NCBI RefSeq assembly: GCF_003073045.1
Contig: NC_037593.1
Coordinates: 10,898,735-10,962,734 of the forward strand
From: Pomacea canaliculata
Lineage: Eukaryota; Mollusca; Gastropoda; Architaenioglossa; Ampullariidae
Length of the DNA stretch: 64,000 nucleotides
Direction: 5' to 3'
Shown: positions 19,409 to 62,445 of the stretch, in pieces
Layout of the letters: the number at the start of each line of letters is the position of its first letter
Position numbering within the stretch: the stretch's first letter is position 1
Notes under the pieces: model-generated
Databases searched by the model: none
What the model saw: the letters and a program-made list of their open reading frames with translations, nothing else
What the model was told of the DNA's origin: nothing
Program-made: the position numbers and the translations under genes

Positions 19409-21831
19409 TCACTCGACCAGAACTAGAAGCAAGACCTTACTGGGGTAACAGCAGCCGTTAAAGCAGCCCCCACCACTCGCGCAGCCCCCACCGCTGCAGC
19501 AGCACAGATACGCCAGCAGCGCCGCAAGACCCAGCGCCAGCAGCAACATCAGGATCGCAAACACCGCCACGAAGCCGCCGTCGTCCCAGATGCTATGTGA
19601 AGACGATGCCGTCGTTGTTGTGGTTGGTGTGGTTGTGGTCGTGGTGGTCGTGGTGGTGGTGGTACTTGTTGTAGTGACGTAGGTGAGGGCGAACGTGGCT
19701 GTCGCCGAGAGAGCGGGGGAACCTTTGTCCACGCACCTGACCTGCAGGTAAAATGTTCGCCCGCTCTCCGACTCCGGAATCTGCTTGCTGTACTGCACCT
19801 GAGGGGACACAACACGTTTACAAGTTTTCTGAGAGTGTTTCAGTGATGCCTGTTTGATGGAGCAATCTCAGGTCATGATTAATAATTAATGATGCATTGA
19901 AACACCGCAAGAGGTACGAGGCTTCAACTCGCGCTCACAATGCAAGGGAGGGAATGTCATGTATTAAAGCTTCAGTCAGGCCATACAAGAGTTCTCTCCC
20001 ATCTATCCGCTGCCTGTTTAAACTGGCAGTAATGCAGAAAAAAAGGAAACCCCTCTCCAAAAAACAAAAAAAAAAAAACAACAACAAACAACCAAAAAAA
20101 AAAAAAACAACAACAAACAAAGAAAAAACAACAAACAAATAAACAAAATAAAAACAAATTAAAAAAGTAAACAAAACAAAAGCAAGAGAAAAAGACAGCT
20201 GCACGCTAATGACCGTGTGAACATGCTATTGAATGACAACAGCTTGGCCTGAAATAGTCTTGTTAAGAAGCTTACCTGTCCATTAGAGAACAGATACAGG
20301 TATGAAGTATCACCGGACACAGTTTCAAACTTGATGTCGTTATTTGGTGACGTCAGATCGTCATCTGTAGCGTAAAACGTTCCCAGAGTTCCTGGGTAAG
20401 AGAAAAGGAACACAGCTGCTAATTACTGATTAGTGGGTTTTGCTGAGTAGTTGTCTATTTTTACCCTATCTCTCCTTTCTCAAATATGTGTGTGTGTGAG
20501 GTTAAAAGCAATTCGTCTATCCAGGTTCATTGATGCTTTCATGATCTACAGATGATAGAAAATAACAGGCAGAAGCACCAGTGTTAAATCCGTTATTGAT
20601 ACATCATTACATGGATTATATTAATACATCATGGAGACAGCAAATATTTGAAGCAATGAGCCACACGAGTCCCTAAATCCAGGGGACATGCTGCTAACAT
20701 TTGAAGACATGACAAGCAACACCAGCCACCCGAAGCACACACACACACAGATATCACCTGATGTCACCTGGCTGAACAAGACAGGATACAAAGGTGACGT
20801 AATAAAGAGGTACACCAACCCTGCCCTGCCCCTGCCTCACCTAGAGATGAGCCCTGGTTGACGGAAGCTGTCTGCACGTTGTTGCCGAAGTTGCACGTGT
20901 TGTCGTTGGCGTCCTGCACGTTGATGGTGATCTGTGATGTTCCCGTCAACCCTTGCGCGTCCTTGGCCTGGATCGTGACGATGACCTTAGTTGGCATGGC
21001 GCTGTTGTCAACGTCATAGTTCACGGCAAAGGTCAACCTGTTCGTGGAGGTCAAGTAGGTAAACCTCTCGCTGTTGTTGCCAGGCAACAGGCTGTACGTC
21101 ATGGCTTGATTTTCCGGATCTGTGGCGCTCAGCCCCAGACTGCATTGCGACACGCCAATCTACAGGTGAGAGGAATGTATTTTAATAGCATAATTCAAGA
21201 ATTCCATTTGTCCTGGTTATATTTAGACACAGCGATAATTTGTTGACACGGTTACAAATTGTGCAATAATTTTAAAATTTAGCATTTATAGTTATTTATA
21301 ACGAATCGTAAACTGACTTTGTGTAAAAGTCGTTGATAAATATTTGGTTGGATTTGATGTCAAGGCTTTAGTCCACTTGTAACTTGTAACTTTTGTCCCG
21401 AGTATCACAATGCCTTGCCTCGCATTAACCAAACTTTCCAATGGATTCCAAATACTTTAGAATATATCATACTTTTTCTGAATGTACGTAGGTAAGTGTG
21501 TAAGTATGTATGACTACGTGATTGTGTGTGTTCACACGTGTGCACCTGTGTGAAGACTTACATCGGACTCTGTCAAAGTGCAGTAGTACATCGGCTGGGA
21601 AAACACAGGAGGTTCGTTGACGTTTTCAACGTTGACGGTGAGAACATCACTCTGTTAGAGGGAATTGTAAAGGTTATTCTCGTTGACGTCACTAGAGTAC
21701 ACGAGGGTGTGCGCCACTTCGCTCTACGAGGGTTACATAACTTGAGTGTACAAGGGTGTACGAAAGTTCTGCTTTCCATTGTCGATTGTTCAACAGTCAA
21801 TCAAATATCAGCCAATCGTGTGTGTACTGTA

Positions 21832-21874
<43 letters not shown>

Positions 21875-21883
21875 GTGTACTTA

Positions 21884-21914
<31 letters not shown>

Positions 21915-24900
21915 ATGTGTATGTGTACATGGATGTGTTCAGGTATATGTTGCATGAGAATGTATGTATATGCACATAATTGAAGATGCTGAATTAAAAC
22001 ACTTAATTACAAGGAGTGAATTAAAGAAACTAGCAAACAGGTGACCTCCGATGTGAGGTATCCATCACTGGCCACACACGTGATGAGGTATTGATGGGTA
22101 CCCGAGTCGTAGTCCAGCAATGTCTCCCCAGTGGTTAGAGAGGCCAACTTAATTTGCTGGTCTAAAACAGAAGAATAAATATATACACACACATTGATAA
22201 GAGGCAAGTTAATATTCTGATATAAAAACAAAAGAATATAGATATATATATGTATACACACAGGTCGGTTAGAGAGGCCAGTTAATTTTCTCATTTATTT
22301 ATAATCAAACCAAATTACTCTTCTTCGTGACTGAACCAACATTTTCATTCGATGAGTAATATTAGTAAGTATAATTATACAGAATGGGCCACAAACGTGG
22401 GCCACATGCTTAATGCGCTTGGACGAGGGCTACTTGAGTGGTCCACCCTGTGTGTGTGCGCATGCGCGCCATGTGAGGGCTTTACCGACAGGTGACTCTC
22501 AAGAAGAAAACCGTCATTATCTACTTACTGTTGGTGTTGTATACAAACTTGTAAGACTCGTCGGCCGGTTTGACACTGCAGGTCGTCGTGACAGTCTGAC
22601 CATCGGGGTCAGTGATGGTCAACGTGCTCAGCACGTAGCCACCCGCCTTGTCCTCGTACACGGACACGGTGTCCGGCAGGTTTGTGATCAACGGCCGCTG
22701 GTTCAAATCTGCCACATAGACACGTCACCATGACAACATTCGCATTACAACGGCTGATGTCTGTTTTGTAGAACGAAAGTAAAATATAAACATCTTACTT
22801 AGGTCTTTGGTGGCATGAACCTGTTTATTCATGATATCTGATGTGAAAACAAGCTGCCAACTGTAATTTTTGATAGTTTAATCTGGTACTTACCTGTGAT
22901 AGGAACATTTAAGATAAAGGTTCCGGTAGACTTTGTGATGTCAGAGGCAACGATAGACAACTTTACCGTCGTCGACGTCAGCGTCAGGAGCGATTTAGCC
23001 ACAGTTATCTCCCCAGTTCCTGCAGAGATATATATATAATGCCTGTGTTATGGCAATATACTCCACACCATACATGTTACTGGTGCTATTTTCAATCATA
23101 CTTATTTACACTTTTTATTTACAAAATAAAAACCCAAATTGTTTGCCCATAACGAAACAGCGTCTCATTGTATGCCAATAGTTTCAGTTCTCTCCCTGCA
23201 ACTAGTAGCTAATGTATTAGAGCATAAATAATGGGCAATGACAGCAACAAAAGTAGAAAAAGATCCATAATTTTCAAAAAAAAGTGTCGACTATGTGTCA
23301 ATCATTACAGGATAAGCAATTTAAACATCGCCACTTCTAACCCGCCACTAAGATAGTTTTAAGAAGGAGAGACATGGCGTGGCTTTACTGTAACAAATAA
23401 CGGCACACGTGATTAGAGAAATGATTCTCACCGGAATTTATTTGAAAGTATCCGCTATTTGGATCCTGGGTCATAGAATAGGTGATGGAATTTTTTTCTG
23501 GGTCCGTTGCAGTCACCGTGTAGACTGTGTCCCCCACCTGGGCGGCAGTGGCGCTGATGGAGCTGGCGGTAGCTAGAAGACAATGTCACGAGTGTAAAAA
23601 CAAAAAAAGTGATATTGAAAATTTGTAATGTTCACAGTGAAAATGTGATCTTTAAAGGCCCTGAGATCTACATTTCTAACTGACAATGTATCATAATGTC
23701 TACATTGCTACCTGACAACGTGTAATACTGTAAATTACATCCTGTCTACATTTCTACTGAGTTACTGTACCATACCGTCTACACCACACCTTGTACATAT
23801 TTTTCACCTGAGTACTGCTCCATATTGTCTACATAAATCCTGTGTATATTTATACGCCTGATTTTAGCGCCATACTGTCTACATTACATTTTGTTTAATG
23901 TCTACCTGAGTTACTGTACCATACTGTCTACATCACACCTATCTTAGAGCATCACACCCTACCTGACGGCCAGACGGTGAAGACGGGTGACTGGTTCTCG
24001 ATGATGTTCACTGTACCCTGTGTAGTCGCCTTGTTGGTGCCATCTGAACATGCTACATTGAACTGTGTAACTGCTGGCAGTCTTGTAGCTCAGTCCTGTA
24101 CCGGTGTAGTAGATACGCTGGTCTGATGACAAGATGATAACGAGCACTGATGTAGAGATTTTACCTTTGGATTTCTTTTTTATTCATTAGTTTTTATAAA
24201 ATTAATTATAAGTAATTTATTCCATTTTTTATATTTCCCCTTCTACTTTTTGCTTCGTTTTTTGCATTTGTTCGTCTTCCTATTCATCATCGTTGAGGTG
24301 CTACGCTGAAGAGGGTGGCAAGCTTCTGATACGTCGAACAAATCTGAACAAAGACTGATTACAAATAAGGAAAGAGAGAAAGTCACTTTGTCCACTTCCA
24401 GATTACAGTTATTAAGACTGAAATATTATAGTCATTATATTTATTTATTTTTTTATTTTTATTATTATTATATTTTTTTTTGCCACCGAGACTGTCTGAC
24501 CACAACAACATAATAAATCACACCAATCAGAGAGTTAGGATGACGTCATACACGTGTCTCCGGTTTGCTGCTGCACGTTGAAAAGGACCGGAAGTAGGGC
24601 TTGTTGACGTCACTGTGCACGTGCATGTGGTGGTTGTTGCTGTGTTGTCGGTACAAACGAGGTCCATTAACCCAGTGGTTGCCACACTCCACTCTGAGAT
24701 GCTCGCTGGGTTCTGGGTCGTGTCGGGGCAACGTCGAGGTTGGCCTGCGGGTGCGAGTCATGACTTTATATAAGAATGTCATTGAAATGCTTTTAATGTG
24801 CCTCCAACTCTTTTTCAACTCTCGAAACTTCAGTAATTACATATGACAGCGATGAAGATTGCTTAGAAGCAAGACATGCGGTATACTGTATGGGGGTCCG

Positions 24901-25147
24901 ACATCTTGGGAAGTAAATAAATGTTAGTAGTCAAATATACAATTATACTGTCACGTAGATACGTTACTTTAGACACTAAATTATTTAAATTTTAAAACTG
25001 CATCACTGTTAACTTTGAGCAAAATCTATCAAAGAAGAGTAAATGAAATGTATTTCTGAATAACTAATTCTTCATTTGACACTTATAGGAACGGCGAAAA
25101 TGGAATAATAATAATGAAGCCTTTAGTTGTCAGCTTCTTCAACCCAG

Positions 25148-25179
<32 letters not shown>

Positions 25180-25572
25180 CTACAGTTTACTTAAACTGAT
25201 AGATGTGAGACATCAATAATCCGTTAAACATGTGGAAAGCAATCAAATAAGATTAATAACCAATTTGAAGAAGCAAAGAATGATCGTATCACGACTACAG
25301 CTTTTTCGAGTTTAGAAGAATGACCAGAACGGAATAAATATTGTCATTTAAATAAAACATTCATCTGCTCGTATTATTTCTTGCGTGACTGCCCTACCTT
25401 GTGTAGCCACGTATAACAAAAACTTATGGAGTCTATGATGTCTTTTCGTACCCTGACTTACCGCCGACACCGGAGTGAGGGAGAGAAGAATAAGAACTTG
25501 AGACACTGAGGTCCAGACACCCGTGAAGCCTGAGGTCAGACTGGTGACAGGTCCTGGCTTTGATCTGTTCAT
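19409..25572 (-). CDS. CadA: cadherin-like single-pass receptor with Thr-rich stalk
   Basis: Predicted cell-surface adhesion/recognition receptor; ligand unknown. Exons 5' to 3': 25572-25462 (signal peptide, 37 residues, phase 0), about 24712-24554 (N-terminal module with CTCTV), 24122-23963, 23572-23432, 23019-22894, 22708-22529, 22161-22046, 21651-21562, 21159-20841, 20391-20276, 19798-19441. If the last donor is not used, the frame runs to a stop at 19409; if it is, a candidate last exon starts at 19290 and stops at 19274. Junction phases match CadB and CadE. Cadherin-like signatures include NVENVNEPP, YDVDNSAMP and QDANDNTC (Cys where classical repeats have Pro). The membrane-proximal domain has DLTSPNND and VRCVDKG. 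A Thr-rich stalk, a helix (FVAVFAILMLLLALGLAALL) and a Cys/Gly-rich tail (CCCSGGGC) follow. One extra base near 24055 breaks exon 3, and the exon 2 boundary is one base out of phase; both could be sequence errors. Confidence 0.82.
21823..21945. repeat. (GTATGT)n microsatellite in a CadA intron
   Basis: Hexanucleotide GTATGT units with small interruptions lie between the seventh and eighth exons of CadA. The overlapping long open frames are repeat artefacts. Confidence 0.9.
23640..23945. repeat. degenerate tandem repeat in a CadA intron
   Basis: Variants of CATACTGTCTACAT and CTGAGTTACTGTACCATA recur roughly every 60 bases, about five times, between the third and fourth exons of CadA. The copies are diverged, which suggests an old minisatellite. 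Confidence 0.6.
25147..25173. repeat. (AAT)n microsatellite
   Basis: Short clean trinucleotide run in the first intron of CadA. Confidence 0.9.
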
Positions 25573-26928: not shown

Positions 26929-29900
26929 CTAGACAGGTGGGGTAGGTTCCGGCGATTTAGGGGTGGCTCCAGTTTCTTTCCAGTCGGCTGAAAAATATCA
27001 GATTTATTATTTCAGGTACTTCATTGTTTTCCATCTGGTACACGTAACCCATCATGCACGCACATGGAGAAGCAGCCACGTGGACAAAAGACAATATAGA
27101 CAAGATGACAGACATGAGAACAGTAATGACACATGCTGCAAGTAGAGGACGCTGGGAAGTGGTCCAGTGTAACAAATGGTCAAAATAATCTCTTACTATC
27201 AATAAACTGTCACTTTAGTAAAGTAAATAACAAACACTATCAAGACAGTAAATCTTACATTCGGCCCAGGCGATGTTCTTGTAGTCTTTGTTTGTTGGTA
27301 ATTCTTCTTGCTCAGGACTGTAAGAGTAAACACTCTGTTATTTTTAGACGTTGAGGATTTAGAATCAAATAAAATAAATAACTGTAAATTTTGAACAAGC
27401 TCAAATGCCGTTTATAAAACTCTGGTCTGTTAGATACTTGACTCGCACTTGCCTATGTCCTGTCACGCTTACCTACACGTGCTAAGCAACTACAAGGTTG
27501 AGAGAGAAAACAGTTTTCAGCCATGAATTTATCTATATTGATAAGGATCGATGGAAGGACTAACATAAAATTTCCAAATACCAACGGGAGCAAATTATTC
27601 AAACAATCACAAGCAAGACAATCTTGCTTGATTTTGGAACAACGAATAAAAGTCACAAAATCTTTCACGTGAGCTATTTTCGATTGAGCAAAGCTGCTAT
27701 CTGTATGATAAATAAACGCGAATTATTTTGAAATAAATTACTTATATCGAGTAACGAATTTTGTTAAAAAAATGTAAAGAAATTCAATCATCCAATCAAA
27801 CAACTACTTACATCTCCAAATCCTTTTCTTTTTTTGTTTCCGTTGTGTCAGGAGCCGCGTGGTTGGACACACTGTTAGATTTTTTGGAGCAGCACACCTG
27901 GCAGCAGGTGTTTTCGGGAGGGGCTCACCTGGCGCCTTGGACCTCAAACAACATTTATAGAACAGGAATAATAGGCACAGAGACACGATCGCCATCAGGA
28001 CGGAGAACACCGCCAGGAAGACGGGGTTGTCCCACAGGGAGTCCGGGACAGGGAGGAAGTGGGCGGCGAACACGGCAGTGGAGGATCTCGGGAAGTGGCC
28101 TCCGTCCACACACCGCACCGTCAGGTAGAAGATCTGCTCCTCGTGGCTGGGGGACACGGCCTGACTGTACAGCACTCCTCCGTCCGGCATGATCCGCAAG
28201 TAGCTCGTGTCTCCTGCAGAGGTCTCGTACACCACGTCATTATTCGGTGACGTCAGATCTTTGTCGTCAGCGTGAAGAACGTCAATCACACCTGTGGAGG
28301 TCACGAGCTTGTATTACTGCACTGCTGGCAGACGATTGTTCCTGGCTAACTACTACAACGAGGCATGAGACTACAAAGCTTCCGGTTTATTCACATTTTA
28401 GATTAACTACTAAAACGAGGCATGAGACTACAAAGCTTCCGGTTTAGTCACATTCTTTGTACAGGCTCGCCGAGACTGGCAGCGGAGACGTTCACAAGAG
28501 GCTAAGCGTTGGTCTTGGCAGACAGACAGCAGTCCACCTATACATGTCCTTAGTGGAGATGATAAGCAAGTAAACAAGAGGATTGAGTTTAGTAACTCAA
28601 GTTTTAGTTAAATAAACAAACCTGAAAGCAGGGAATACAACATGGCGCTAGACTGTAATGAGAGAATTACAGAAAACTCGGCAAGCATTACTTATACCCA
28701 CCTGAACAGAAAATTGTATTTGATCAGTTTTAATTAATTTTAACAAACTACTCTGATTTTATTTATTTATTACTTGTGTCCCTTTAAATATTTTTCTGTT
28801 GCAAGATCTACTGACCCAGCGGAGTGCTGCTATTGAACTGCGTTAGGAGAGAATTGTTCCGGAACTTGCAGGTGTTGTCGTTGACGTCACGAATGCTTAT
28901 TTCTATCTTCGCTTCTGACGTCATGCCGATGTCATCGGTGGCGATAATCGTGAGGTTCGCCGCGACTGGTCTAACGCCTTCATCTACATCGTAGTCCGTG
29001 GCGAAGGTGACGTGACCTGTGGTGACGTTGAACCAGAAGAACGACTCTAGTCTGCTGGCCGAGCTTTTGAAGGCGTACGTCACGCCACGCCGGCTGTCCG
29101 GGGCGGTGACGTTTATGCCAGGGTCACAGTGGGACATCTTGGCCTGAAGAAGAATGTACTGAGCAACACTATCTACTTTTTCGAGTATTCTTTGTGAACT
29201 GCTTGAAAAAATATTTGTAAGTTTAGGAAATATGAAAGACTGCACGGGTATGAAAAGGTGTTTTACGAAAATATATATATATATTTTTGTTTGACGACAT
29301 GATCGCAAAATAATCTTAGTAAATCTTTCATCGGTTAGATGATAATAGAGATGAAAGAAAGAGATGACAAAGGAGGAGTAGAAAAGGCGCTTTAAAGAGA
29401 GGATAAAATGTCGACACCTGTTGTCTGTTTACGACCAAGAATGTTTATTTACTCCAAACAACAAAAGTGAGTCTACTTAGTTGAAACATCTAACGCAGTC
29501 TAATGCGCATCTCATTAAATCAAAACAGTGACTGAACATCTTAACGGCCGCAGCCACGTGACGTAATGTTTTACGTACCCAAGACTCGTCTAGAGTGCAG
29601 TAGTACACGTCATGGCTAAAAATAGGCGGTTCGTGCACGTTTTCTATGTCTATTATTACCACACCCTGGGAAAAAAGGAGACAGCGCACAAACATGTCAA
29701 AGTTCTACTAAACCACAGTATTATTTAAAGTAAAATGTGTATTTTGTTAAGTTGCTAACCAAGTGCTCAATAATAAAGACTAAATTGATAATGTCATTTA
29801 TAAAAAAATCGTCAACAAATGGTGATTAACGTTTCCAAATAATGTCACTAAGTATTTTTACATTTTCCTTAGTACAGGCTTCCACCTTACAAGATGGTAG

Positions 29901-32892
29901 TAAACGTTAAAAGCAATATCATAAAAATAAGTTGATTCACTACAATTTGTAAAATACCGAATAAAACAAATGTTTTTCTTAAAATTTTTTTTTTTTTAAT
30001 CTGCTAAGAGAATTCCTTTTTCACAGCCTGCTTCCTCTGAGATAACACACCAACACGACTAACGCTCACCATTTTATGGCAACCCACACGTACCACAGCT
30101 GACGTCAGATATCCGTCACTGGCAACACAATGGATGACGTATTGCCTGACGCCATCGTCAAAGTCAAACAGACTCTGGGCTCGCGGCAGTTGCGACACTT
30201 TTATTTCGCGAGCTGAGTAAACAACAGAGTAGTGACCTACCTTGGTGTTATTTTATCTATTTCTTTACCTGTAGACAATTACTCTATTCTATACATTTTG
30301 TAATTTTATTATATTTTGTATCAGAATAAGTTACATGTGTTGCTGTGAATATAAAACACTAAATATACCTACTTATATGGATTTTTGTAAATGTAGGAAT
30401 GTGTTTAGCTATATATAGACGAGAAGAGAAATCAAACTGAAAGTTAAGAAAAACTGTTCATTGAGGAAAAACACTTTTTTCAAACCAAAAATGTTCTCTG
30501 CAGTAATATACTACGTGACGTGTATTGGTCAGTGACGTCCTGCTTACATCTGATGTCGAAGTAAAACTTGTAGTTTTCTGCTGCAGGATAAACCACGTGG
30601 CAGTCAGTCGTGACGGGGTCATTATCCGGGTCAATGACGTCAAGGGCGGTAAGCAGGAACCCACCTGTGGTGTTCTCGAAAATACTGACGTTCTTGGGCA
30701 GGTTGTTGATGATCGGCTGATGGTTCCTGTCTGTCAGATAAAGTCTCAAATTAAAATGGTTGACAGCTCTCTCTCTCTCCCTCTCTCTCCCTCTCTCTCT
30801 CTCTCTGACACACAACAAAAAGCCCCGACGACCAAGTTACGAAAATGGACAAATCCAGAGGTGACCCAGAGACGTTTAGTTCTCATTGCAGTGGTGACAA
30901 GTGCCACCCTCCCTACCCAGTGTCGTAAAGACAGGACTGACGCTAACATTTATAGCTCTGTGATCATTGGGTATAAATACTGGCTGTTGAATGTTATCTC
31001 CACCTTGCCCCTGTCTATCTGTTGTGTGGTGTGTACCTCAAACAATTATCTTTTCATTTACTCTTAAACCTCTTTGTTACAGTCATCAGTTGTAGTTCAT
31101 TGACTCAACATTCATGAACTGGTTCTGAAGAGTTCAAATCATCCTATTTATTAAATGAAATCCATGAAATGTTGCTTGTCAGGGTAAGTTTCCATCAAAA
31201 ACGAGGATTGCAAAAACACTCACTTGAAAAGTCAACAAAGACGGTAAGAGAAACAGTGTTGGACACGTCCGACACGTCCACCTTGCAGACGACACGGTCA
31301 ACAGCCACAGAGGACGAGTGTACAGCCAACTCGATGCCACCAGAGGCTGAAAAAGATGCAATCACACCAGACACCAGAAAATCATCACTGATAGAGAAAC
31401 TCATGCAACCTCATGTCAGTTGAAGACATTGTTTCATATAAATCATTAATTATTAAATCAAGAAACAGTTATCTGGTGTTGGCAGTGGGGAGAAGCAGAC
31501 ATACAGATCACGTGACTCAATGACTAAGATTTAGGGAAGTCTCGGAAATACACGAGGTTATAACACAACGGTTATTACTTGCAGTTATAATACAAGGGTT
31601 ATTACTTACAGGTGATGCGTAAATAGTTGTCAGGAGGAAATTGCGTCATGGAGTAGGTCAGAGGCTCGTTTTCTACATCTGTGGCGACCACCGAGTAGAC
31701 CAAGGTTCCAGTAGGTTGTCCTCGTCCAACGACAGCCACATCTATGAGTTGTTAACAAAAAGAATGATTCAACTGCTGTAAATGTAATTATAAGCATTAA
31801 AATATTTGTAATTAGACATTAGATAGATCTTGTGACACGTGACACCTCTTGTCACAAGTGCAACGATTGGAGAGAACAATGAAGTCGTCGTAGTGACCAA
31901 AGTGACTCCCCTGATGGCCAGTTGGTGACAACGGGATGATGGTTCGGCCAAACGTCCACTTCTAGAAACACGGGGCTGGAGTCCACGTTGTTTTCACTGC
32001 AGACGACCTCCAGTCGGTAGGTGCTGGCTACGGTGTAGTTCACGAAGTAATGGCCTCGTTGTCCAACGTAGTGAACTTCGAACTCTGTCTCTGACAGACC
32101 AGGAATGTAGACAAGATGAAAAAACAGTCTTCTCGAAAAATCTTTACTTTGTTCTCTTTTGTGGATTTCCAAAGACAAGAATTATTGTCGTTGTAAAAAA
32201 AAATAAAATAAAACAATGGCGCATAACAATAATAATAATAATGGCGTGGCGAGGACAAAGGTCACAATGATGAGGACAGAGACCAAACTAACTCACGGGT
32301 CCCGGTCTTTGATCTCCAAACATCAAAGGGAGAGAATGGTGGCGCAGAAGAGATTATGTTGCAGATGCAAGATGTGGTGGCGCCACTTGGCAGACATTTT
32401 ACTGACGTCAGTAGTGTTTCCATCACCGCACCATCGCTGATAGTGACGTAAGTGTCCGCGAGGTCGGCGTGCGGAGTTTGCTGGAGAAAACGTCACGAGA
32501 ACTAAGAAAAAGATGGACGCTATCACGTGAACCGAACATTCACTTTAAATCTCACCCAGCCAATGACACGCCCTGCGGTTAGATGATGACGTCACACAAT
32601 AATAATAATCATGCTCGTTAAATAACTCATCTTTGATCCCTCACACAACTCTTTCTTTGTTTTCTTTTCTTTCTATCGATAGTTAGTAAACATGATAAGC
32701 AATGTCCGCTCTCTATGCATTGTTGGAAGATGAAAAGCACACACACACTATAAGAAAACCAAAATAAAAATTCTGAGTTTGAAGAAACAAGAAGATCCAT
32801 TATAGATATTTTTAGTACAAAAGTGAGACACTTACTTGGAACGAGAAACCAAAGAAAAAAGGAAGCAGGCAAAGTAGCAAGTTAATTGTCAT
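26929..32892 (-). CDS. CadB: cadherin-like single-pass receptor without stalk
   Basis: Paralogue of CadA, about 640 residues. Exons 5' to 3': 32892-32836 (signal peptide, 19 residues), 32480-32297 (N-terminal module with SCICN), 32090-31911, 31741-31610, 31346-31224, 30730-30548, 30212-30094, 29665-29579, 29143-28816, 28291 to 27943 or 27929, 27871-27812, 27317-27259, 26987-26929 (stop). All exons up to the transmembrane one stay in frame with matching phases. Cadherin-like marks: IENVHEPP, DYDVDEGVRP, RDVNDNTC, DLTSPNND, VRCVDGG. The membrane helix is at about residues 555-576, with no Thr-rich stalk before it. The tail carries TNKDYKNIAW, shared in form with CadC and CadD. Oddities: the donor after the third exon reads GG instead of GT at 31910-31909; two exons split in CadA are fused here; and the tail splice after the helix is uncertain, because the strong GTGAGC donor at 27928 is out of phase with the next exon. 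Confidence 0.85.
28346..28455. repeat. 57-base tandem duplication in a CadB intron
   Basis: Two adjacent copies with a period of 57 bases share GAGGCATGAGACTACAAAGC and the flanking TAACTACTA. They differ at a few positions and do not touch coding sequence. Confidence 0.85.
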
Positions 32893-35096: not shown

Positions 35097-35194
35097 GTGA
35101 GGACAGACTCACTGAGTCATCAGTAGCCATGTGAGGACAGACTCACTGAGTCATCAGTAGCCATGTGAGGACAGACTCACTGAGTCATCAGTAG
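35097..35194. repeat. 34-base tandem repeat, three copies, over the CadC stop
   Basis: The unit runs from GTGAGGACAG through ACTCACTGAGTCATCAGTAG to CCAT. Two full copies and most of a third are nearly identical; the third contains the CadC stop codon (35188-35190 on the - strand). Each unit contains a near-palindrome GACTCACTGAGTC and the heptamer TGAGTCA. The matching place in CadD (about 45530-45610) holds a degraded version. Confidence 0.9.
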
Positions 35195-50362: not shown

Positions 50363-50396
<34 letters not shown>

Positions 50397-52646
50397 TAAT
50401 AATAATATAATACATAATAATAATAATAATAAAATATAATAATAGTTGTTGTTGTTGTTGTTGTTGTTTCTTCTATCTCTTGTCTTTTTGCCTCGTGTCA
50501 CTTTTGTTTCGATTTTTTTAGAATTTGTAAAAACTGATTTTGTCTTTTTTCTCGGTTGTTTCTTTTGTTGTTGTTTTACTTATTTATTTTCTATTTCGTT
50601 TCTTTTGCCTCCTTGTCTGCTCAATCACCTGCTGGGTAACCAGTTATGATGGGCTGTTGGTTAGGCAAAATGTCCACTTCCAGATAGTTCGGTAATATAG
50701 TGTCACCAGTCCAATCTGTACACTTAATCTGTAGATAATACGGCGTGACATCAGAGGACAGTTTGGTGCTGCCAGCTTGAGTACCGATGAAGTACACCTT
50801 GTAATCTGCAAAAAAACAACAAAAATACAGTTTCAAACTTCCCTGCTTCTTCTTCTTGATTTACAATGTTGGGAACTGTACAGTGGTACTTATGTTCTGA
50901 GAGGAAGTAAGAGATTAGTTGCTCTAGAAAATTGCAGATTGAAACTGAGCACTAGGAAGCGTCAAAATTAACAGAATCACTTTTGTTAAATCGGTCATTC
51001 TGAAAACAGATTATTTAAACGTGCTTTTATTTATTTAAATTTTCAACCACATATTAAGCAGAGAGCGGTTGAGTTTCTGTTTCATAATTCAAAACAAGCA
51101 ATAGTGGGATGAGAGAGAATGTGGGCAACTGTACATCCTAAGATCCTGGTGTTGGTTTGTATGAATCATCCTTTCAGTGAAAATTCAAATTACAGAATAT
51201 TATAGAAACGTAGAGGAGTTCAAGCACAATAATAGATTCTCGGGGCCAGATCATACTTTCGTTTGTAGTCAGTCTCCAGCAATCGAAAGGAGCGTTGACT
51301 GGTATGGTTGGTGGGTTGATGTTACAGGTGCAAGAATATGGCGACGGAGTAGTCGTAGTTGTCGAAGAGGACGAAGGTGAACAGTAGACTTCAGTGATTA
51401 GTGTTCTAGGTTTTGTGTCCACAGGCAAGACGGCGTTCCCCGTTTGCAAACTCACAGTGGGACCCTGGTTGATTGAACAGCAGAGTAACACTAAAAACCT
51501 ATGTGTCACAGTTGCAGGTCTTCTACACTTTGACTATCACATTGCTGACACTCAGGTTTGTTGCTGGTTTGGTGATAGCGAGTGATCCCGTTATGCGGTG
51601 AAAAGTTGGTTTTTGACAAACACTGGACACTGTGTGCTCGCATCATGGTATATGGTTTATCTATGTTGCTCTAATTAGGTCTGGATGATAGTCACAATGG
51701 TCAGAGGTAGACAATGAATCATGTCATTTTTGGCGAAATCAATCCTTGAATATTTCTTTTACTGTGGTAATGATTAATGCAAAATTACCAACTGTCTGCC
51801 ATTCCCATACATACCCAAAGCCTTGGCTACATAGTAAAATTCTAACCTGAGAGGCCCAGGTAGACCTGCCTGCCTTATCTTGTAAACATAACATACTGTA
51901 ATATTGTATTAATTCTTATAAACATGTCAGATACAAGAGGAAAATTCCCCATTCACCCAAGGCTATATCATTTTAACATCCCTGCCTATTTGTAAAAATA
52001 ATTTACAGAGTTTTATTTGAACTTTCTCTATATCATTGTATTGTTTCCATCCCCAAATCTCAGATCCATACAGAAGAATAGGTTTATTTTTGTATCAAAT
52101 ATTTTAAAGATTATGTCTGTTGTAAGGTTCTTTAGTCTAAAATACATTTTATTGATTCCTGCAAAGGCTTTTATGAATTTCCAGATAAATTATCAGTACA
52201 TTTGACCCACTTTAGTGTAGATGGGAATGTAACGCCTAAATAGTTACAACTAGGTTCTTCAGTGATCTTATTTGCAGCATATTATTTTTTCACAATCGTT
52301 AATAAAGCCACCATTTAAAAAATATTTTTGTTTTATCCATATTAATTGTAAGTCTTCATTTGTTTCAAAATGTTTCTAGAGACATTTTACGCTGATGGTC
52401 AACAGGGGAATCAGCAACAATGACAATGTCATCAGCATACATCAAAAGTAAGATTCCAAGTGGATTAATCTCGTTTTTTTCTGACGAATAAGGTACATTC
52501 CCATATTTTCTGAAAAATGAGATTTTACTCACATGTTCCGAAACTGAAATACACATACAGAAACAAGGTTTACTCACAGCGTCAACATGCACGGTGAGCA
52601 TCAGGATGGCGGAGACAGTGATGATGACAACTGTAGTTTGGTCCAT
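45712..52646 (-). CDS. CadD: cadherin-like single-pass receptor, several frame breaks
   Basis: Paralogue in unit 2. Exons 5' to 3': 52646-52578 (signal peptide, 23 residues, phase 0), 51464-51257 (N-terminal module with SSSSTTTTTPSPYSCTCNI), 50805-50629, 50255-50115, 49562-49437, 49310-49132, about 48106-47990, 47970-47900, 47780-47470, 47460-47390, 47250-46854 (Pro/Thr stalk and helix FVAVFAILMSLLGLLLIAGI), 46395-46330, about 46045-45990 (SPNYRELAW) and a last exon from about 45805, where the frame read stops at 45712. The first five exons are clean and phase-matched to CadB and CadE. Exon six lacks one base near 49263, and later domain exons have several indels, so YDVDNTNNP and NDNTC are visible in different frames. 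Predicted surface receptor; ligand unknown. CadD shares the tail motif with CadB and CadC. Its start faces the CadE start, 4.4 kb away. Confidence 0.75.
49605..49669. repeat. (AAAC)n microsatellite in a CadD intron
   Basis: Uninterrupted AAAC units lie between the fourth and fifth exons of CadD. Confidence 0.95.
50366..50467. repeat. (AAT)n then (GTT)n microsatellite in a CadD intron
   Basis: AT-rich trinucleotide run followed by a clean GTT run, between the third and fourth exons of CadD. Confidence 0.9.
51780..52490 (-). mobile_element. LINE reverse transcriptase fragment in the first intron of CadD
   Basis: The - strand reads LLLMYADDIVIVADSPVDH (active-site block Y-A-D-D, about 52460-52400), then CNYLGVTFPSTLKWVK (about 52250-52200), KAFAGINKMYFRLKNLTTDI (about 52175-52110) and ILLYGSEIWGWK (about 52080-52045). 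This is the expected order for the palm/thumb region of an animal LINE reverse transcriptase. Frame changes and a few stops mark it as a dead, 5'-truncated copy. It lies between the signal-peptide exon and the second exon of CadD in the same orientation as the gene. The matching intron of CadC (about 42160-43000) has no such insertion. Confidence 0.85.
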
Positions 52647-55019
52647 CTGGGACTCGAACACACGTCCAAATACTTGGACTCTCCTCACAGCAGGACAGGA
52701 TTCACAGTCACTCGTGTGACTCCTTGGTGAGGCGCTGGCCCTGTGTGAGGCCACACAGAACACGACAACCCACGAGTTTAGTTTTCGTGGTAACAGTAAA
52801 CCCGGTTTATTATCAGGGACCACGGTTGTACATAAAAAAAAACCCGATCTGTTAAGAAGGCAATGATCGAGAGCCCACTCCGGCAATAACTGTCAACGGT
52901 AATGAAAAAAATTAAAGCAATGATGGATCTGGTCACGTGTGTTTAGCAAGCTTTACCAAACACCTCGCCACACGAGCTCAAAGCTTGTCTTGTCCAACTC
53001 CCGTTGTGACGCATAAACCACACAAACACACAAACGGGTATTTGGACACGGGTGGCTGCCTCCCTTGTCTGTCATTGTCTGATGAGCCTTCGGTCCCTTG
53101 AAAGCTTTCACATGCACCGGGGTGCTGTCAGTTGGGTTCTGGCTGGGTGGGTATGAGAATGGGTGGAAAGGTGAATGTGTGGGGGTGGGGTGGGGAAGGA
53201 AGGAATAAAGGGAGAAATGAGGATAGGTGTCTTTAGAAAACCGTTTTATAACGTTTAAGCGTTTTACGGGGCTGTCGTCTCGCTTTCATCGTTGTTCCGT
53301 GGCGAGAAAAGGGCAAAGTGTGGATGTGTGGAGGTCTGGGAGTGGCCGACTAGTCTTCACGTGGAGAAAGTCTGTCTCGCGCTGAAAGGCGGCGCCTGGG
53401 GACGGACAGGAACAGCCACTTTTATGGTAATAAACTCACGGTGGTGTAAACACGTCAATGAGACTTATTTTCGACAAGAATGGTGTTTACACATGGACTT
53501 AGTGCACGCTGGGAAACCATCAAAACAGCTTAGAAAGGTTGTTGCGTACTAAATGTCAGGTAATAGGAACAGAAAATATCTCACACACACACACACATAC
53601 ACACTTGTGGGTTACCCGTAGCTGTATTGAAGGAAAATGTACAATCTTTATGTTTTATTTTTAATTATTTTTCTGCTTTTTATTTACTTATTTGTTTTTT
53701 TTTTTCCTTTCTTTTACGTTTCTTTCGTTAATTTATATATTTAGAGTAAGAAATTAAGTGTATAAATACACTTAAGCAATAAAATATGACGTAAGAGAAA
53801 TAGCGTTCATAAATAATGATAAAAAAATTTTTTTTAATCAAGAAAAGTATTTTAATCATATTATACTGTAAACAGCTCTGTTTTTTGGTCAGTTGGAATA
53901 CTGCCTTTAAATCAAAGTAACTAATGTGGTATGAAAAAGAGTTCCACTGTCTGGATCACAGGTTGTCCATATGTGACTGTCTTCAAAGGAGGGATGGACA
54001 GAATGAGAGAGTCAGATGAGGAGCAAAGGTTCGAGCAGGAGTCTGGACAGACAAAAGATCAGAAAACCAGAGAGTGGGAGAAGTCAATAAACAATTCATT
54101 GCAGAGAGTTCAAAGTTTAGCCCATTTCTGCTTTAACTGGAAGCTGGTGAAAAGTGTACAAAAGTAGTGTCACGTGATCAGACCTGGGAGTGTGGAGAAC
54201 GAGGGCAGAAACCGACTTCTGGACTTGTTAAAGCTTGTCAATGAAGTCCTGTGGACATCCAGCAAGAAGATAGTTGAAGTAGACTAACGGGGATAGAGAA
54301 TCAAACGATATATAAGAATATTAGGGATTGACAGATTGTGGTGAATAAAGCTGATCATGCGAGGTTAGAGACCTCAGTGTCAAGACATGTCTGAGGTCAT
54401 CAAACCTGAGTTCGTGTTGAGGGCAACATCGGAGTTGCCAACCCAAACACAGAAAGGCAAATCAGGACGAGCTCTAGAACTCCTCTTAAAAGAAATTCTG
54501 TTTTATCTTCTTTTAGTTTTGTTTACTTTGTTCATCCGTACTTGAACATAAAAAAATAGTATAGAATGTTTTGGATCGCAAATTTTTAACAAAAGAAAAC
54601 ATTAGTTTCCACTATTGCTCAACAGCTTTGAAATTTAAAGAAAGGACAAACGAGTTTTTTTCAACCTCTGAAAGAATAAAAAATATACCACTGTAGGCTT
54701 TGTGATGAATGATATGCAAAAACTTGAGTAATACAAGATATATATTGCATTCCAGATAAGTGAATAGAGTTCACTTGAACCTTTGACATCACACAGGTTA
54801 ACCCCAATGTGTGAGAAAACCGAGTTGAACCGAGGGTTTAGCAAAGCAGAAGTAAACTAAAGCATGCACCTGTGTGTGTGTGTGTTGGTGTTGTTGTTAC
54901 CGTTGCTGTTTACGAACAAACAAATATTTAACGAGAGGAGAATACTTCATTAAACGAGTCCGTCACTCCTCCTGCTTGACGTTCATCAAAGTCATTGTCG
55001 GTTCCGGCTTTCCTCCGTC

Positions 55020-55135
55020 CACCCTACTCCACCCAGCCATCCACCCTACTCCACCCGGCCATCCACCCGGCCATCCACCTTACTCCCACCCTGCCACCCA
55101 CCCTGCCACCCACCCTGCCACCCACCCTGCCACCG
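55020..55135. repeat. C-rich minisatellite (CACCCTGCCACC)n
   Basis: About four near-perfect 12-base units, preceded by degenerate CCATCCACCCTACTCCACC units. The matching place in unit 1 (about 43875-43900) has only a single short version, so the array expanded after the duplication. Confidence 0.85.
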
Positions 55136-56068
55136 CAATACTTTCTCTCCATTACTTTTTATTTTGCGGGTTTGATGCACAGCATGTCGGGACCCGAAGC
55201 TCATTATATCGCCACATGTCCCCCTGTATCGCCAGGTGCAAACCTGCAGGTGCGCCGTTAGATGTCCCGCAGGTCGCAAGGTGTCAGGCTGAATGGCAGG
55301 TGAACTTTTGCTCCTCTGATCGACAGATAACACTTGTGGAATAGGATCGCAATAGAGCTTAAGATATGTGGTTACATCAAGGTGCACCTGTGTAAAGAAG
55401 CTTGTCTCCTACTCTCTTCCCGTCCTCCAGATAGCAAGAGCTTGTAGTAACCACGAATATGTATAAAGAAAACAATAAATAAATAAATTAATAAATTAAT
55501 TATTAATTAACAAACAGCAAGCTTGTAGACAGGTATACGCATGCCTTCCAGACGAGTTCAGAAAAATACGGAATCGTTGTGTGTGGCAACCATTGTTGTA
55601 CTAACCTGACTCTCTTGAATCCTCGGGAGACTTGGTTTGGTTGCGTGAGTATACCTGACGTGTACATTGAAGAACCAATATAGTTCGTTCATTTTGTTGT
55701 TAATATTGAAAGCTAAATTATTTATGTAAATAAGATATTGTTGCTGGTGCGAACGACACGTGACTCTTCGAAATCCGTCTGACATTGTCCTTCGATTTTC
55801 GTACCGCCTTTGTTTGCGAACAGGACATTATTTAAGAAAAAATATTTTGAAGCACAGCCATTGAAAAGAAAAATTTAAACAGTATTGTCACTACAAAATG
55901 AAAGTTGTCTCCCATGACGGCAAAAAAATCTTTCATTCCAGTTAGCGATTTAATAATGACTGGTTCCTTTAAACCGTTCTGTGTTTGCTTTTTTTAAATT
56001 CGCAGATCATAAATTTGCAGTTTACATTTTAAACTAAGTGGCTGACACATTGATCATTGAACAAATCA

Positions 56069-57003: not shown

Positions 57004-58683
57004 ATGAAGGACATCTTCCATCTCCTCTTTGGCTGCCTCCTGCTGGCTGGATCTCTGGATGGCGTGTCCTCAGTAAGTTGTTATTCTGTTCACTACTAGG
57101 TGTTATGTATATAATTGATGTGTTGGTAATATTACAGAGTATTTCTCTTGAGATGTTGTTGTGTCCGATGGGATTAACACACTGAAATGCTTTTGAATGC
57201 TAAGAGGAGTTGTTGACTTCAGTTCCATTTCAAGCCAGGCCAGTAAGATATTTATTCCTGCATTTGTGTGTTAAATGACACTTATATTCAGTCGCCTGCA
57301 TCAAGACATGAACATCCTACGTTGGTTACACAAAATCTGCATTTATTTAATTTGGTAGGTATCGTATGCACGCACGCACGCACACACACACGCACACCTG
57401 TACATGAGCACACACACAAACACTCTCTCGGGTTCATTGCCCTGTGGACAAGTACACAGAGACCACTGGGGTGTGGTGGTGTTCCAGGCTGCCCCGACCT
57501 TTAGCTCAGTACCACAGCCAGTGGTGGCGCTGAAGGAAACAGAAACTCAGATACAGGATCTGCTGACAGTGACCTGTACTGGCGATATACCTCTCGTCGT
57601 GTCGCTGGACTCAACGGTGCCGTCATCGCCATGCGGCACGTGCTTTCAGGTCTACCCCAGGTGTGGTGGAGGTAAGAGGAGACAGGGAGAGATGCTACAT
57701 GAACGCCATTGCCTTGAAAACGGCCATTTGTAGAACAGATTTCTCAGCAGAAAAATTCTTAATAACGGATGTAAAATTTGATTTGAATGCAGATCAATTT
57801 TTAGCTGCTTTCCACTAATTGTATTTATATACATGTATTTCTATATACTCTTGTCAGTATGTCTTTGTCGTCAGGATTTTTTTTCATTCGTTGATGGTCT
57901 GATACACTGTGTTTAGCTTCAGTCATTATTACCCACCGCATTGTAATTATTATTGTCTTGTTCGATGTATGATCTCACCTGTCTCGTCACTGTTGTAGGT
58001 ACCGGGTACTGTCTGAGATACTTGCCTGGTCAGGGCACCCTGAAATTCTCTCAGGTCAGCAACTACGTCATCACACTTTCCTGTAAAGACATCAACAGCT
58101 TGAGTGCTACCACCACAGTGAACGTTAGGATTGAACCCAACACCCCTCCATACCCGCTTCAAGCGACAAAGAGTGAGTGGTTGAGTATTTTTGTCGAGCG
58201 ACAAACCCACATGAGAAGCGATCAGAAAATGTCGTGAAAGCTGTATTCTACAAAATTTTCTTAACGAGATACATATTTTGATGCACACAACTGATTGCTA
58301 AATATATTTTCCCTGTGACCATCAAATAAAAATTGTCCGTTGAATAACATCACACCATATTGTATCTTCTTATGAAGTCGAAACCTCGCCTACCCGCCTC
58401 GCTCCATCTTTCTCAGATTTGAAGCTCATTGGCTCACTGATGTAATATGTATGTTTGATGCTGCACAATGTAGGGTGTTTTAGTCTGTTTAAATCCCTGT
58501 GACAACCAGGTTACACACTGGCTAACGCAAAGAACGCGGCCATCGGAACCTCCGTCACCAGCGCCTCCTGCAACGACGACGACACCGACGCGCTGTCCTA
58601 CTCCATGACATCCAGTCCATCCACATCAGTCTTTACGGTCGGATCAGGTGTGTATGCTTCGACAGTATGGACTGCATGTGAAA

Positions 58684-58735
<52 letters not shown>

Positions 58736-61700
58736 TGAGATAGACACACAAACTTATGTGTGTGAGTGTGTTCGCTCACATGAACAACTTCTCACCTTTT
58801 CTCACCTGAGCTCACCTTTGCTCTGCAGCCGACGGGATCATTCGCACGTCTGGTAATCTTGCCGCAGAGTGTCGCTCCCAGTTTGATTTGACCGTTATCT
58901 GCACAGACAACATTAACAGCGTCGTTGGAACTTCGAGAGTTTGGGTGACGTTGAGCGGTAAAGTACTTCCGGTCTATTCCCCCCCCCCATACAACCATAC
59001 AATTATTATCAATATTGTAGATCTTATTTATAGTAATAAGTATTGTTCAAGATGTGTATTACATTTAAGTATTGCAAATGAATATGGTGACGACGACGAT
59101 GATGACGATGATGATGATGATAGAAGAGGAAGACGAACAACAAGAGGGAAGCTTGTCCCGTTGGTCTTTTTACTGGAGTAAGAGTTTCGAGAAAAATTTA
59201 GCGAGGGCGTTCAAAGTAGTTGGAAGTCTGTGGTGTTGACGTTTATGATCTGACGTCCGTGCAGGCGGCAACGACAGACCTGCCATCAGCGGCATCAACT
59301 ACTCGCTGAACGTCAGGGAGGACAAGGCCGTGGGGAGCTCATTGGCCTCCTTCACCGTCACCGACAGCGACCAGACCTCCTGCACATTGGCGGCAAACCC
59401 AACTACCTCCCTCCAGTACTTCACCCTCAGCAGTGAGTGGTACAGTGTGTGTGTGTGTGCGCGTGTGCGTGCATGCGTGTGTGTGTTCAAGAACACCGAT
59501 GACTTGATTCTAAGTGGTTAACCCCGGGTTGTACAGCGGGTGGATACTTCTGGCTTGTCATCGCGCTTCACTTCAAGTTTTGTTTCCCTCTCTTCATTCA
59601 GCGTCCAACGTCATCACCGTTGGGTCAGCGCTGGACTACGAGCAGAGCTTGACCCGCAACACTAACCTCACGGTGACCTGCAGTGATGGCTACTGCACGT
59701 CATACGCCGGTTACCTCTACGTCATCGTCACGGACGTTAACGAACCCATCACGTTGTACCCGCGAGACTTCACGCTCAGTACATACGAAGGAAAGGTAAA
59801 CAAAAAAAATAAAAAGAAACGTAGACATCTTGAAAGCATGCAAACAACATCGGGTTGTCGATGTCACTTTGACCCCTGTGGATCGAACCTTGACACGTCT
59901 CCTTTTGTCTGGCTCAGATTTCTCTGGATCCCGGCTGGACGCCAATCGACCCTGACGAAAACGACTACCCTACCTACACCATTGTCGGCGGCAACAGCAA
60001 GAGCCGCTTTGCCATCAACCCAACGACCGGTCTGATCACCTCAACACTGGACTACGACATCGACCAGGGCGCCATGCCGTCAACCGACACCATCATCGTG
60101 CAGGTACTGATGGCCTCATCGCCGGCGTTGTGATGCCGCGAACAGCTTCTACACCAGAAAAAAAAAGAAACTCAAATTACAAGCAAAAAAGAAAAAGAAG
60201 GGAAAAAGAGAAACTTATCACCTGGACTACCTTGATCTTGTTTCAGGTGAAGGATGTGGCAGGTCACACGAGCACCACCACAGTGACATTGACCATCCTC
60301 GATCTCAACGACAACGCCCCAATCTTCAATCAGCAGACACAGGAAATCACCATCACGGACTGCACTACATCTCTCGGCGTCATCGGCACCGTCACCGCCA
60401 CCGACAAAGACTCCAGTTTTCAGGGTCAGGACTTGCAATCGTTCTCTCTGTCTTCCATTTAAAGGCACAAAGGATACGAGACGGAGGGAGGGAGACAGAG
60501 ATAATATGTGTATGTGTGTGTGTGTGTTGGTGTGGGTAGGCTCCCTCTTTGTCCTTATCGTGTTCTAGACACAGTGGACCGCTTTCACTGCTCCCTGTGG
60601 TGTGTTGGTCTTTACAGTTTTGTCTGCAGAATTAAAGAACATTTGAGTGAGTGATTGCAATTATGTTTGGCTGGCTGGCTGTCCGGCTGCCTTACTTGGT
60701 AGTAAGGAACATCTGTCCCTGTTCAGGCAACAACATCATCACCTACAGCGGCACCAACGGGCCCATCACCATCGGCTCCAGCGGCAGCATCATCGCCAAC
60801 ACGGGTATAGTGGGCGGTCACTCCTACACCGTGTCCGCGGTCGCCAAAGACGCTGGCCTGGTCCCCGGCCCCCTGTCCTCCACATCCGCCGCCATCACCG
60901 TTATCGTCACGGTAACCTGCACTTCGCTGTACATGAGTCCTAGCCTTATAGTTGGTGTGCGAATATTTTGCATGTAAAAATCAGCTGCACATGATACATA
61001 CGTGAATACATACTTAATACACAATACATACAAACGGTCACGAAAACCAACTAACCATTACTCTCCCTCACCAACAGCCTTGCCCCACTACCACAACGTC
61101 AACAACAACAACGACTACCAAGGCGCCCACTACAACGACTTCAACAACAACAACGACCGCGACCATCTCGTTGACCAACAGCAAGACGTCGGTGACGGAC
61201 AACCTCGGGTGGATCATCATGGCGGCCCTGTTGGGGACTGTCCTGCTGGCTCTGGCGGCCTTCATGGTGTGGCGCTACTGCGGCCACCTCGCCGCCTCCT
61301 CCTCCTCCTCCGGCGCCACGAGGGCTGTCTGGAGCGACTGTGCAAGCGCCGCGAGCCGTGAGTGGTTTACTGTTCCAAGCAATCAACTGTCCTGTCCACG
61401 CATACAACTGACCTTAGTTGCACTTGCAATGGATTTTCTACAGGATGTCCCCGCCACAACAACTTACACTCGCTTTATGACTCTGGTTTCTGGGTGCACT
61501 TGACTGAGACATAGTTCTGATCACCTTTGACACATAGAGACATGGTTCTGATCACGTGTTTGACACCAACACCAAACTACCGACAACAAATAAATCGACT
61601 TTTTTTTTTGCTCTATTCTTGTCTGTTCCTATTTGTGTGTCTTTATCCGATTTTGTACGACTGATTCGATGGTTGACAGACTGATGATGGCTTTTCTGCT

Positions 61701-62445
61701 GTTTTCAGTTTTTTTATTTGTATGTGACCCGAGTTTCTCTTAAGAACTTTTTCTATTCAAAAAAAAAAATTTTTTTTGCTTTGTGTGATTGCAGGCCACC
61801 CAAAATTCGAGAAGTCCAGCCTGTGAGGGGGTGAGTGCTTTAAGGAATTATTATTTAATGTGATGATGATGGTGGTGATAATAAATAAATGCTAGGCAAA
61901 TTATTCACTTATTCCAAGTGTCATTTAACTTCAACAATAGATTGACTGGATATGCTTGAAAGTATTTATTTTATTTCCAAGGCAACCACCACTCAGTGGC
62001 AACCAAGGCTTTTGGCAGGAACGTAAGTGTGATTTTGTTGTTTTCTTTAATCGTTTGACTACAGTGTGAATACAGTGTGAATATAGTGTGAATACAGTCG
62101 CTGTTGAATGCCTCTTGTAGTCGAGGAACACCAACACTTGTTTACTTTGTCGTCTTTTAGAATCGCTGTTGTGTAAACAAAGCTTTATCACTATGTAAGT
62201 TCACTCGCATCAGAAAATTTCGAAGTTTTGTAACTCCCAGAAAAGAAACCTATTCGAAGCTGTTTGCTTTTCGTTTTAAAGGTCTTCTTTTAACTCTTCT
62301 GTGTTCCCATTGGTTTGCAGGTTACCCAGACGACGACTACGTAGACCAGCCAATCCGTGACAGGACTCCAACTCCTGCACCAATCGAAGGCGATGGACCT
62401 CTAGCCTTGACCCAGCAGCCATGGAGGTCACGTCCGTTGTTCTGA
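57004..62445 (+). CDS. CadE: cadherin-like single-pass receptor, complete
   Basis: Complete 692-residue model with all junction phases consistent. Exons: 57004-57072, 57488-57671, 57999-58172, 58510-58647, 58829-58957, 59265-59432, 59602-59795, 59918-60103, 60247-60424, 60727-60911, 61078-61357, 61795-61822, 61982-62022, 62321-62445. Residues 1-23 are a signal peptide. Residues 24-84 hold the N-terminal module with a CGTC motif. Then follow roughly five short cadherin-like domains (to about 535) with SCTL/TVTCSDGY cysteines, LDYE, VTDVNEP, STLDYDIDQGAMP and LDLNDNAPIF (classical Pro kept). A Thr-rich stalk lies at about 536-563, a membrane helix at about 579-599, and a tail of about 90 residues with YPDDDYVDQP. 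It differs from CadA-CadD by lacking the three cysteines around the fourth domain and by one extra intron in that domain. Predicted adhesion or recognition receptor at the cell surface; calcium binding is plausible from DxD/DxNDN motifs, ligand unknown. Confidence 0.9.
58687..58731. repeat. (GT)n microsatellite in a CadE intron
   Basis: A clean GT run of about 22 units, shortly after the fourth exon of CadE. Confidence 0.95.

What the first reader, a model, noticed from the sequence alone, without database searches (positions are those of the whole stretch)
19409..62445. Five-member cluster of short cadherin-like receptors with one shared exon plan
CadA-CadE share the same order: phase-0 signal-peptide exon, an N-terminal non-cadherin exon ending in phase 1, then domain exons with matching phases, a stalk/helix exon and short tail exons. 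The exon length 184 is identical in CadB and CadE for the N-terminal exon. Classical cadherin repeats are about 110 residues with Pro after NDN; here the domains are shorter and carry paired cysteines. This looks like a lineage-specific receptor family that expanded by tandem duplication, a pattern expected for recognition or immune-type genes.
Basis: partly seen in the sequence, partly recalled or inferred. Interest (0 to 1): 0.72.

Follow-up and report, generated by a model that had tools for sequence, protein, structure and literature searches.

The report
Tandem cluster of five-domain short cadherins
Five neighbouring gene units look like one mostly old tandem family of short cell-surface cadherins with five cadherin-like domains; this is a known kind of gene with an unusual divergent tip domain, and an immune role is not shown.

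Summary
The cluster is real: units A-D on the minus strand, E on the plus strand. B and E read open from signal peptide to membrane helix. A, B and E pass the Pfam cadherin cut-off; D falls below it; C was too broken to scan.

Main correction: the "N-terminal non-cadherin exon" is the first half of a divergent, cysteine-bearing cadherin-like domain (EC1); the next exon is the other half. Readable members thus have five cadherin-like domains, a stalk (Thr-rich except in B), a membrane helix and a short tail. A, C, D and E share a PPxRVRPV-like tail motif.

The exon plan is shared but not identical, and the 184-nt match of B and E is not a family constant. Duplication is mostly old: cleanly readable domains are 22-48% identical; C and D form a tandem pair of about 10 kb.

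C and the 3' half of D are full of small indels; poor consensus and decay both remain possible, so five functional genes are not established.

Best filed as atypical cadherins. Adhesion or recognition is inferred; an immune role and lineage-specificity are untested, since no animal genome could be searched.

The parts
19242..25572 (-). Gene A: signal exon 25572-25462; EC1 exons 24744-24554 and 24122-23963 (one frame break each); EC2 23572-23432, 23019-22894; EC3 22708-22529, 22161-22046, 21651-21562; EC4 21159-20841; EC5 20391-20276; EC5 end + Thr stalk + TM 19798-19441; probable tail exon with TRVRPAEKDL, motif at 19274
   Evidence: exons 4-11 join open, PF00028 9.6e-28; tail exon limits read by eye
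27929..32892 (-). Gene B: ten exons open from signal peptide to TM (585 aa); no Thr stalk; exon 3 donor reads GG; tail not settled
   Evidence: PF00028 5.9e-11
36580..43085 (-). Unit C: partner of D; signal exon near 43085; many frame breaks; exons 4-6 not recognisable; tail exon with EKPPIRVRPVEE, motif at 36636
   Evidence: signal exon and outer limits read by eye; no tblastn hit in C
46326..52646 (-). Gene D: signal exon 52646-52578; EC1 51464-51257, 50805-50629; EC2 50255-50115, 49562-49437 (open); EC3-TM 49310-46853 with frame breaks; tail exon EKPPTRVRPVREYEEVHSRDNL, motif at 46382
   Evidence: outer limit read by eye
57004..62445 (+). Gene E: exons 1-11 open from signal peptide to TM (57004-61357, 628 aa); tail exons 61795-61830, about 61982-62022, 62321-62445 in a frame one base off
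   Evidence: PF00028 1.6e-28
57488..58172 (+). EC1 of gene E, encoded by the supposed non-cadherin exon (57488-57671) plus the next exon (57999-58172)
34410..55355 (.). Head-to-tail duplication of about 10 kb holding C (34.4-44.1 kb) and D (44.8-55.4 kb)
   Evidence: six aligned blocks, 68-83% identity, from 34410-35179/44768-45629 to 43873-44113/55101-55355

Best explanation
This is a mostly old tandem cluster of atypical, short, single-pass cadherins. Each readable gene encodes a signal peptide, five cadherin-like domains, a stalk (Thr-rich in A, C, D, E; short in B), a membrane helix and a short tail. SHOWN BY SEQUENCE: domain order, shared intron positions, cysteine pattern, tail motif in four units. 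INFERRED: calcium stiffens the membrane-near part, because the EC3-EC4 and EC4-EC5 linkers keep NVNEPP/DANDN-type motifs, while the EC1-EC2 and EC2-EC3 linkers lack most of the acidic residues and are probably flexible. The cysteine-bearing, most diverged EC1 tip then binds a partner on a neighbouring cell (same protein, sibling or other ligand), and the PPxRVRPV-like tail recruits a cytoplasmic adaptor. The likeliest role is cell-type-specific adhesion or recognition, not an adherens junction. Structural class about 0.9; adhesion/recognition through EC1 about 0.5; immune role about 0.2.
For: PF00028 in A, B, E; EC2, EC3, EC4 of E each pass the cut-off alone, EC5 of B reaches 4.8e-5 below it. 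PDB: the 60 shown of 133 matches for E and all 50 for B are cadherin-superfamily chains by their names (that the MCG133388 chains are gamma-protocadherins is borne out for one, otherwise recalled). EC1 profile: the only PDB matches below E 0.01 are 4 of 10 listed, all protocadherin-1, over positions 8-107 or 8-110 of 113; hhalign of EC1 against EC2-4 scores 27.4, above 60 of 60 column shuffles (best 16.8) and the reversed profile (15.4); against EC3 alone 33.0. Tail motif: 5 pattern hits in six frames, 4 in the 3' exons of A, C, D, E, none in B. Tails of B (read on), D and E have no Pfam match up to E 10. Linkers and identities.
Against: Scanned alone, EC1 of B and E and EC3 and EC4 of B give no PF00028 match, EC2 of B and EC5 of E only 0.057 and 0.026. 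EC1 against EC4 alone gives no match (E 0.12) and against EC2 alone only E 0.0062; hhalign probability against EC2-4 is 40%. The AlphaFold model of EC4 is poor (mean pLDDT 52.8); Foldseek finds nothing at E 0.001, best 0.021 for mouse CDH23, mixed with Ig, PKD and bacterial folds. Tails of A and C were not scanned. The motif pattern was written after seeing the tails. No expression, ligand or cross-species data. C and part of D may not be functional.
Confidence: 0.62

Rival explanations
1. Diversified recognition (allo- or immune-type) receptors: EC1 varies between copies and individuals, and copy number is polymorphic.
For: EC1 is on average the least alike domain over the pairs A-B, A-E, B-E; tandem C/D duplication; glycosyltransferase family 11 genes lie beside it.
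Against: No population data; domain ranges overlap (EC3 B-E 23%, EC5 A-E 26%); A's EC1 was read past two frame breaks; PTC2 single-pass proteins of Biomphalaria have no known domains (passages of PMC7494358), so they are no precedent for cadherins.
Confidence: 0.2
2. Ordinary conserved invertebrate adhesion genes, with one-to-one orthologues across the phylum, happening to lie side by side.
For: Most paralogs are old (22-48% identity in cleanly readable domains), so each may predate the species; B and E are open through the TM.
Against: C and D are a younger pair, and read-through D is closer to A (37 of 57 residues in exon 6, 50 of 100 in exon 8); orthologues could not be searched.
Confidence: 0.25
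3. C and D are decayed pseudogenes rather than badly read genes.
For: Read-through of C exons 7-9 needs 16 frame shifts and meets 2 stops in 236 codons; D exons 6-9 need 9 with 1 stop in 308 codons; C exons 4-6 are not recognisable. Only 13 of 78 gaps in the C/D exon block lie in homopolymer runs of 3 or more, which is not typical homopolymer error. Three other C/D blocks are also gap-rich (0.26-0.31 per mismatch).
Against: Gap openings per mismatch reach 0.50 in the C/D exon block (51 of 78 gaps are 1 base), above the other 11 blocks (0.03-0.31); D exons 1-5 are open; FUT2 and FUT3 also carry frame breaks; the C and D tails keep a clean motif.
Confidence: 0.35

Closest known systems
Atypical cadherins (as defined in passages of PMC10734073)
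   Same: Cadherin repeats in varying number, TM, no catenin-binding region detected in the three tails scanned
   Different: Small five-repeat genes in a tandem cluster, with a cysteine-bearing EC1 and a shared PPxRVRPV-like tail motif; no named orthologue found with these tools
Vertebrate classical cadherins
   Same: Five cadherin-like domains and a TM
   Different: No match to any Pfam model in the three tails scanned; tip linkers lack calcium-type motifs
Octopus clustered protocadherins (PMC6339937 passages; single-exon ectodomain recalled)
   Same: Clustered cadherin-superfamily genes of an invertebrate
   Different: Five repeats rather than the 6-7 given for protocadherins in PMC10734073; ectodomain split over about ten exons
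Biomphalaria GRC/PTC2 single-pass transmembrane clusters (PMC7494358 passages)
   Same: Clustered single-pass TM genes with low paralog identity (PTC2)
   Different: PTC2 genes contain no known domain; these are cadherins

Membership tests
Cadherin superfamily | At least two cadherin repeats | tested here: met
   PF00028 above cut-off in A, B, E; three single domains of E pass alone
Cadherin superfamily | TM helix and relatively short tail | tested here: met
   Read by eye from A, B and E models; no predictor run
Classical cadherin | p120- and beta-catenin-binding tail | tested here: not met
   No Pfam match up to E 10 in 3 of 5 tails (D, E, and B read on past its presumed donor); E read past one frame break; A and C not scanned
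Protocadherin | 6-7 cadherin repeats | tested here: not met
   Five domains, EC1 by profile comparison; definition from the abstract passage of PMC10734073
Protocadherin | Ectodomain in one large exon (recalled) | tested here: not met
   About ten exons
Atypical cadherin | Variable repeat number and no catenin-binding motif | tested here: met
   with the tail limits above; definition
Atypical cadherin | Phylogenetic placement with a named atypical family | not testable with these tools
   No animal genomes or protein sets searchable
Biomphalaria PTC2-type cluster | Single-pass TM proteins with no known domain | tested here: not met
   Cadherin domains present; definition
Immune or allorecognition receptor | High polymorphism and recognition phenotype | not testable with these tools
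   No individuals compared

The most novel reading that the evidence does not exclude
An undescribed cadherin-based recognition family: a disulphide-stabilised, calcium-independent EC1 tip diversified between tandem copies, carried on a calcium-stiff EC3-EC5 stem, signalling through a new short PPxRVRPV tail motif.
Probability: 0.15. Interest if true: 0.65.

Novelty: new variant of a known kind. Interest (0 to 1): 0.36.

Why it matters
If EC1 is the recognition tip, this would add a cadherin-based clustered receptor family next to the clustered protocadherins, with a simpler five-domain layout and a short motif to trace its signalling. If not, it remains a useful correction: the odd N-terminal exon is a diverged cadherin half-domain, and part of the cluster is too broken to count as working genes.

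Tried and rejected
Rejected: a single directed base conversion as cause of the skewed C region. Reduced-alphabet comparison raised C/D matches for G>A, but also for C>T, C>A and A>T, so no conversion stands out; a forced alignment of C 38-42 kb to D gave 43.5% identity against 41.2% for reversed D, so that stretch cannot be compared. Rejected: the 184-nt exon as a family mark (A 191, D 208). Weak: the AlphaFold model and Foldseek search of EC4 add little. A first frameshift alignment with a lenient penalty gave 4 false breaks in open B exon 10; the stricter rerun still gave 2 there, so counts for C and D are approximate. Literature: nine searches; their listings, several of them capped, showed no title or abstract start describing such a cluster. 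Passages were seen in PMC6339937, PMC7494358, PMC9210306, PMC10898136 and PMC10734073; other papers only as listings. Rfam: no match in the window at gathering score.

Full report
What is there. The window holds five paralogous cadherin-like units, A-D on the minus strand and E on the plus strand. I built exon models by hand from the sequence. B joins ten exons into one open frame of 585 aa, and E joins eleven into 628 aa, each from signal peptide to membrane helix. In B the donor after exon 3 reads GG, and in E the end of exon 9 was chosen by homology, so both models still rest on judgement. A joins open from exon 4 to exon 11; its exons 2 and 3 each show a frame break. D is open over exons 1-5 and broken over exons 6-9. 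C has no tblastn hit at all to the readable domains; it is known from DNA similarity to D, from its tail exon and from frameshift-tolerant alignment of exons 7-9, with short pieces of exons 2 and 3, while exons 4-6 were not recognisable. The same tblastn search showed no further unit, but since it missed C it could miss another broken one.

Domain identity. PF00028 matches E at 1.6e-28, A exons 4-11 at 9.6e-28, B at 5.9e-11 and D exons 1-5 at 4.9e-5, the last below the curated cut-off. Scanned one by one, 3 of 5 domains of E pass the cut-off (EC2, EC3, EC4) and 0 of 5 of B do, EC5 of B coming nearest at 4.8e-5; EC1 of either gives no cadherin match. Weak matches to other Ig-like models (Big_9, He_PIG) stay below their cut-offs. 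Against solved structures, the 60 shown of 133 matches for E and all 50 for B are cadherin-superfamily chains by name.

The N-terminal exon. Exons 2 and 3 together make a domain whose four-sequence profile has only protocadherin-1 chains below E 0.01 in the PDB (4 of 10 listed, E 0.00065-0.0019, positions 8-107 or 8-110 of 113). hhalign against EC2-EC4 gives score 27.4 and probability 40%, higher than 60 of 60 column-shuffled controls (best 16.8) and the reversed profile (15.4); against EC3 alone 33.0, EC2 alone 20.6, and EC4 alone 14.0, which is no match; the positive control EC2 against EC3/EC4 gives 65.4. So it is most likely a diverged cadherin-like EC1 split by a phase-1 intron, and each readable protein has five such domains.

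Exon plan. The signal exon ends in phase 0 in A, B, D and E. Exons 2-6 end in phase 1 in B and E and, where the frame is intact, in A and D. Three differences exist: A and B carry an extra phase-0 intron where D and E have none; E splits the EC4 exon; B fuses EC5 with the TM exon. The 184-nt exon 2 of B and E is exact but not shared by A (191) or D (208).

Tail motif. Beyond the given claims, 4 of 5 six-frame hits of a PPxRVRPV-like pattern fall in the 3' exons of A, C, D and E; the fifth, near 12129, is elsewhere. The pattern was written after seeing these tails, and C and D share theirs by duplication, so this is consistency and not an independent test. In A the motif frame does not follow from the exon 11 donor found, and B's tail could not be settled. 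The tails of D and E, and B read on past its presumed donor, have no Pfam match up to E 10; A and C were not scanned.

Age and mode. Identities between cleanly readable domains are EC1 22-32%, EC2 26-44% (A, B, D, E; A's EC1 read past two breaks), EC3 23-48%, EC4 34-39%, EC5 26-46% (A, B, E). Over the same three pairs A-B, A-E, B-E, EC1 is lowest on average. Read-through D is closer to A: 37 of 57 residues in exon 6, 50 of 100 in exon 8. C and D lie in a head-to-tail duplication of about 10 kb with blocks of 68-83% identity.

Sequence quality. Of 12 repeated blocks, the C/D exon block has the most gap openings per mismatch (78 to 155, 0.50). The five other C/D blocks have 0.27, 0.08, 0.31, 0.04 and 0.26; A/D 0.20; FUT2/FUT3 0.06, FUT1 pairs 0.03 and 0.05; two other repeats 0.22 and 0.14. 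In the exon block 51 of 78 gaps are one base, yet only 13 of 78 lie in homopolymers of 3 or more. In C, minus-strand G is 0.05-0.15 from 38 to 42 kb, against 0.13-0.25 from 48 to 51.5 kb in D. Read-through counts at the stricter frame-shift penalty (stops at -4) were 16 frame shifts and 2 stops in 236 codons for C exons 7-9, 9 and 1 in 308 for D exons 6-9, 2 and 0 in 248 for open B exons (both false), 2 in 283 for FUT2, 1 in 290 for FUT3. Poor consensus and decay both remain possible.

Mechanism. From the alignments, the EC3-EC4 linker (NVNEPP, NVHEPP, DVNEPI) and the EC4-EC5 linker (DANDN, DVNDN, DLNDN) keep calcium-type motifs, whereas EC1-EC2 (NQSP, NHHP, NQQP, NTPP) and EC2-EC3 (LNQRP, RNHQP, LNTRP, GNDRP) mostly do not. 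I infer a flexible, cysteine-bearing tip on a calcium-stiffened stem. Reading these motifs as calcium sites rests on general knowledge of cadherins. Binding partner and signalling are unknown.

Filing. By the definitions in passages of PMC10734073 these are atypical cadherins: no catenin-binding tail detected where scanned, and five repeats rather than 6-7. They are unlike Biomphalaria PTC2 proteins, which contain no known domains (passages of PMC7494358). Nine literature searches listed no equivalent; the library lacks most subscription journals and several listings were capped. Species and phylum were not established.

Noticed in passing
1738-2835, 8025-9041, 15797-16976 (+): Three tandem glycosyltransferase family 11 (alpha-1,2-fucosyltransferase-like) genes; the first and part of the third match PF01531, the second was not scanned but aligns to the first; the second and third carry frame breaks and are 89% identical in DNA over 825 columns.
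   Followed up: partly
38000-42000: Strong strand skew: minus-strand G is 0.05-0.15, against 0.13-0.25 in the paralogous D stretch 48-51.5 kb; cause unresolved.
   Followed up: partly
52365-52892 (-): Weak reverse-transcriptase remnant (RVT_1, E 0.012, below cut-off) in an open stretch that overlaps D exon 1 and intron 1; the matched part lies in intron 1.
   Followed up: partly
31911/31910 (-): B exon 3 is followed by GG instead of the GT donor in an otherwise open gene.
   Followed up: no
35096-35194: Perfect 34-bp tandem repeat, 2.9 copies, between B and C.
   Followed up: no
28347-28454: Nearly perfect 57-bp tandem duplication in a B intron.
   Followed up: no
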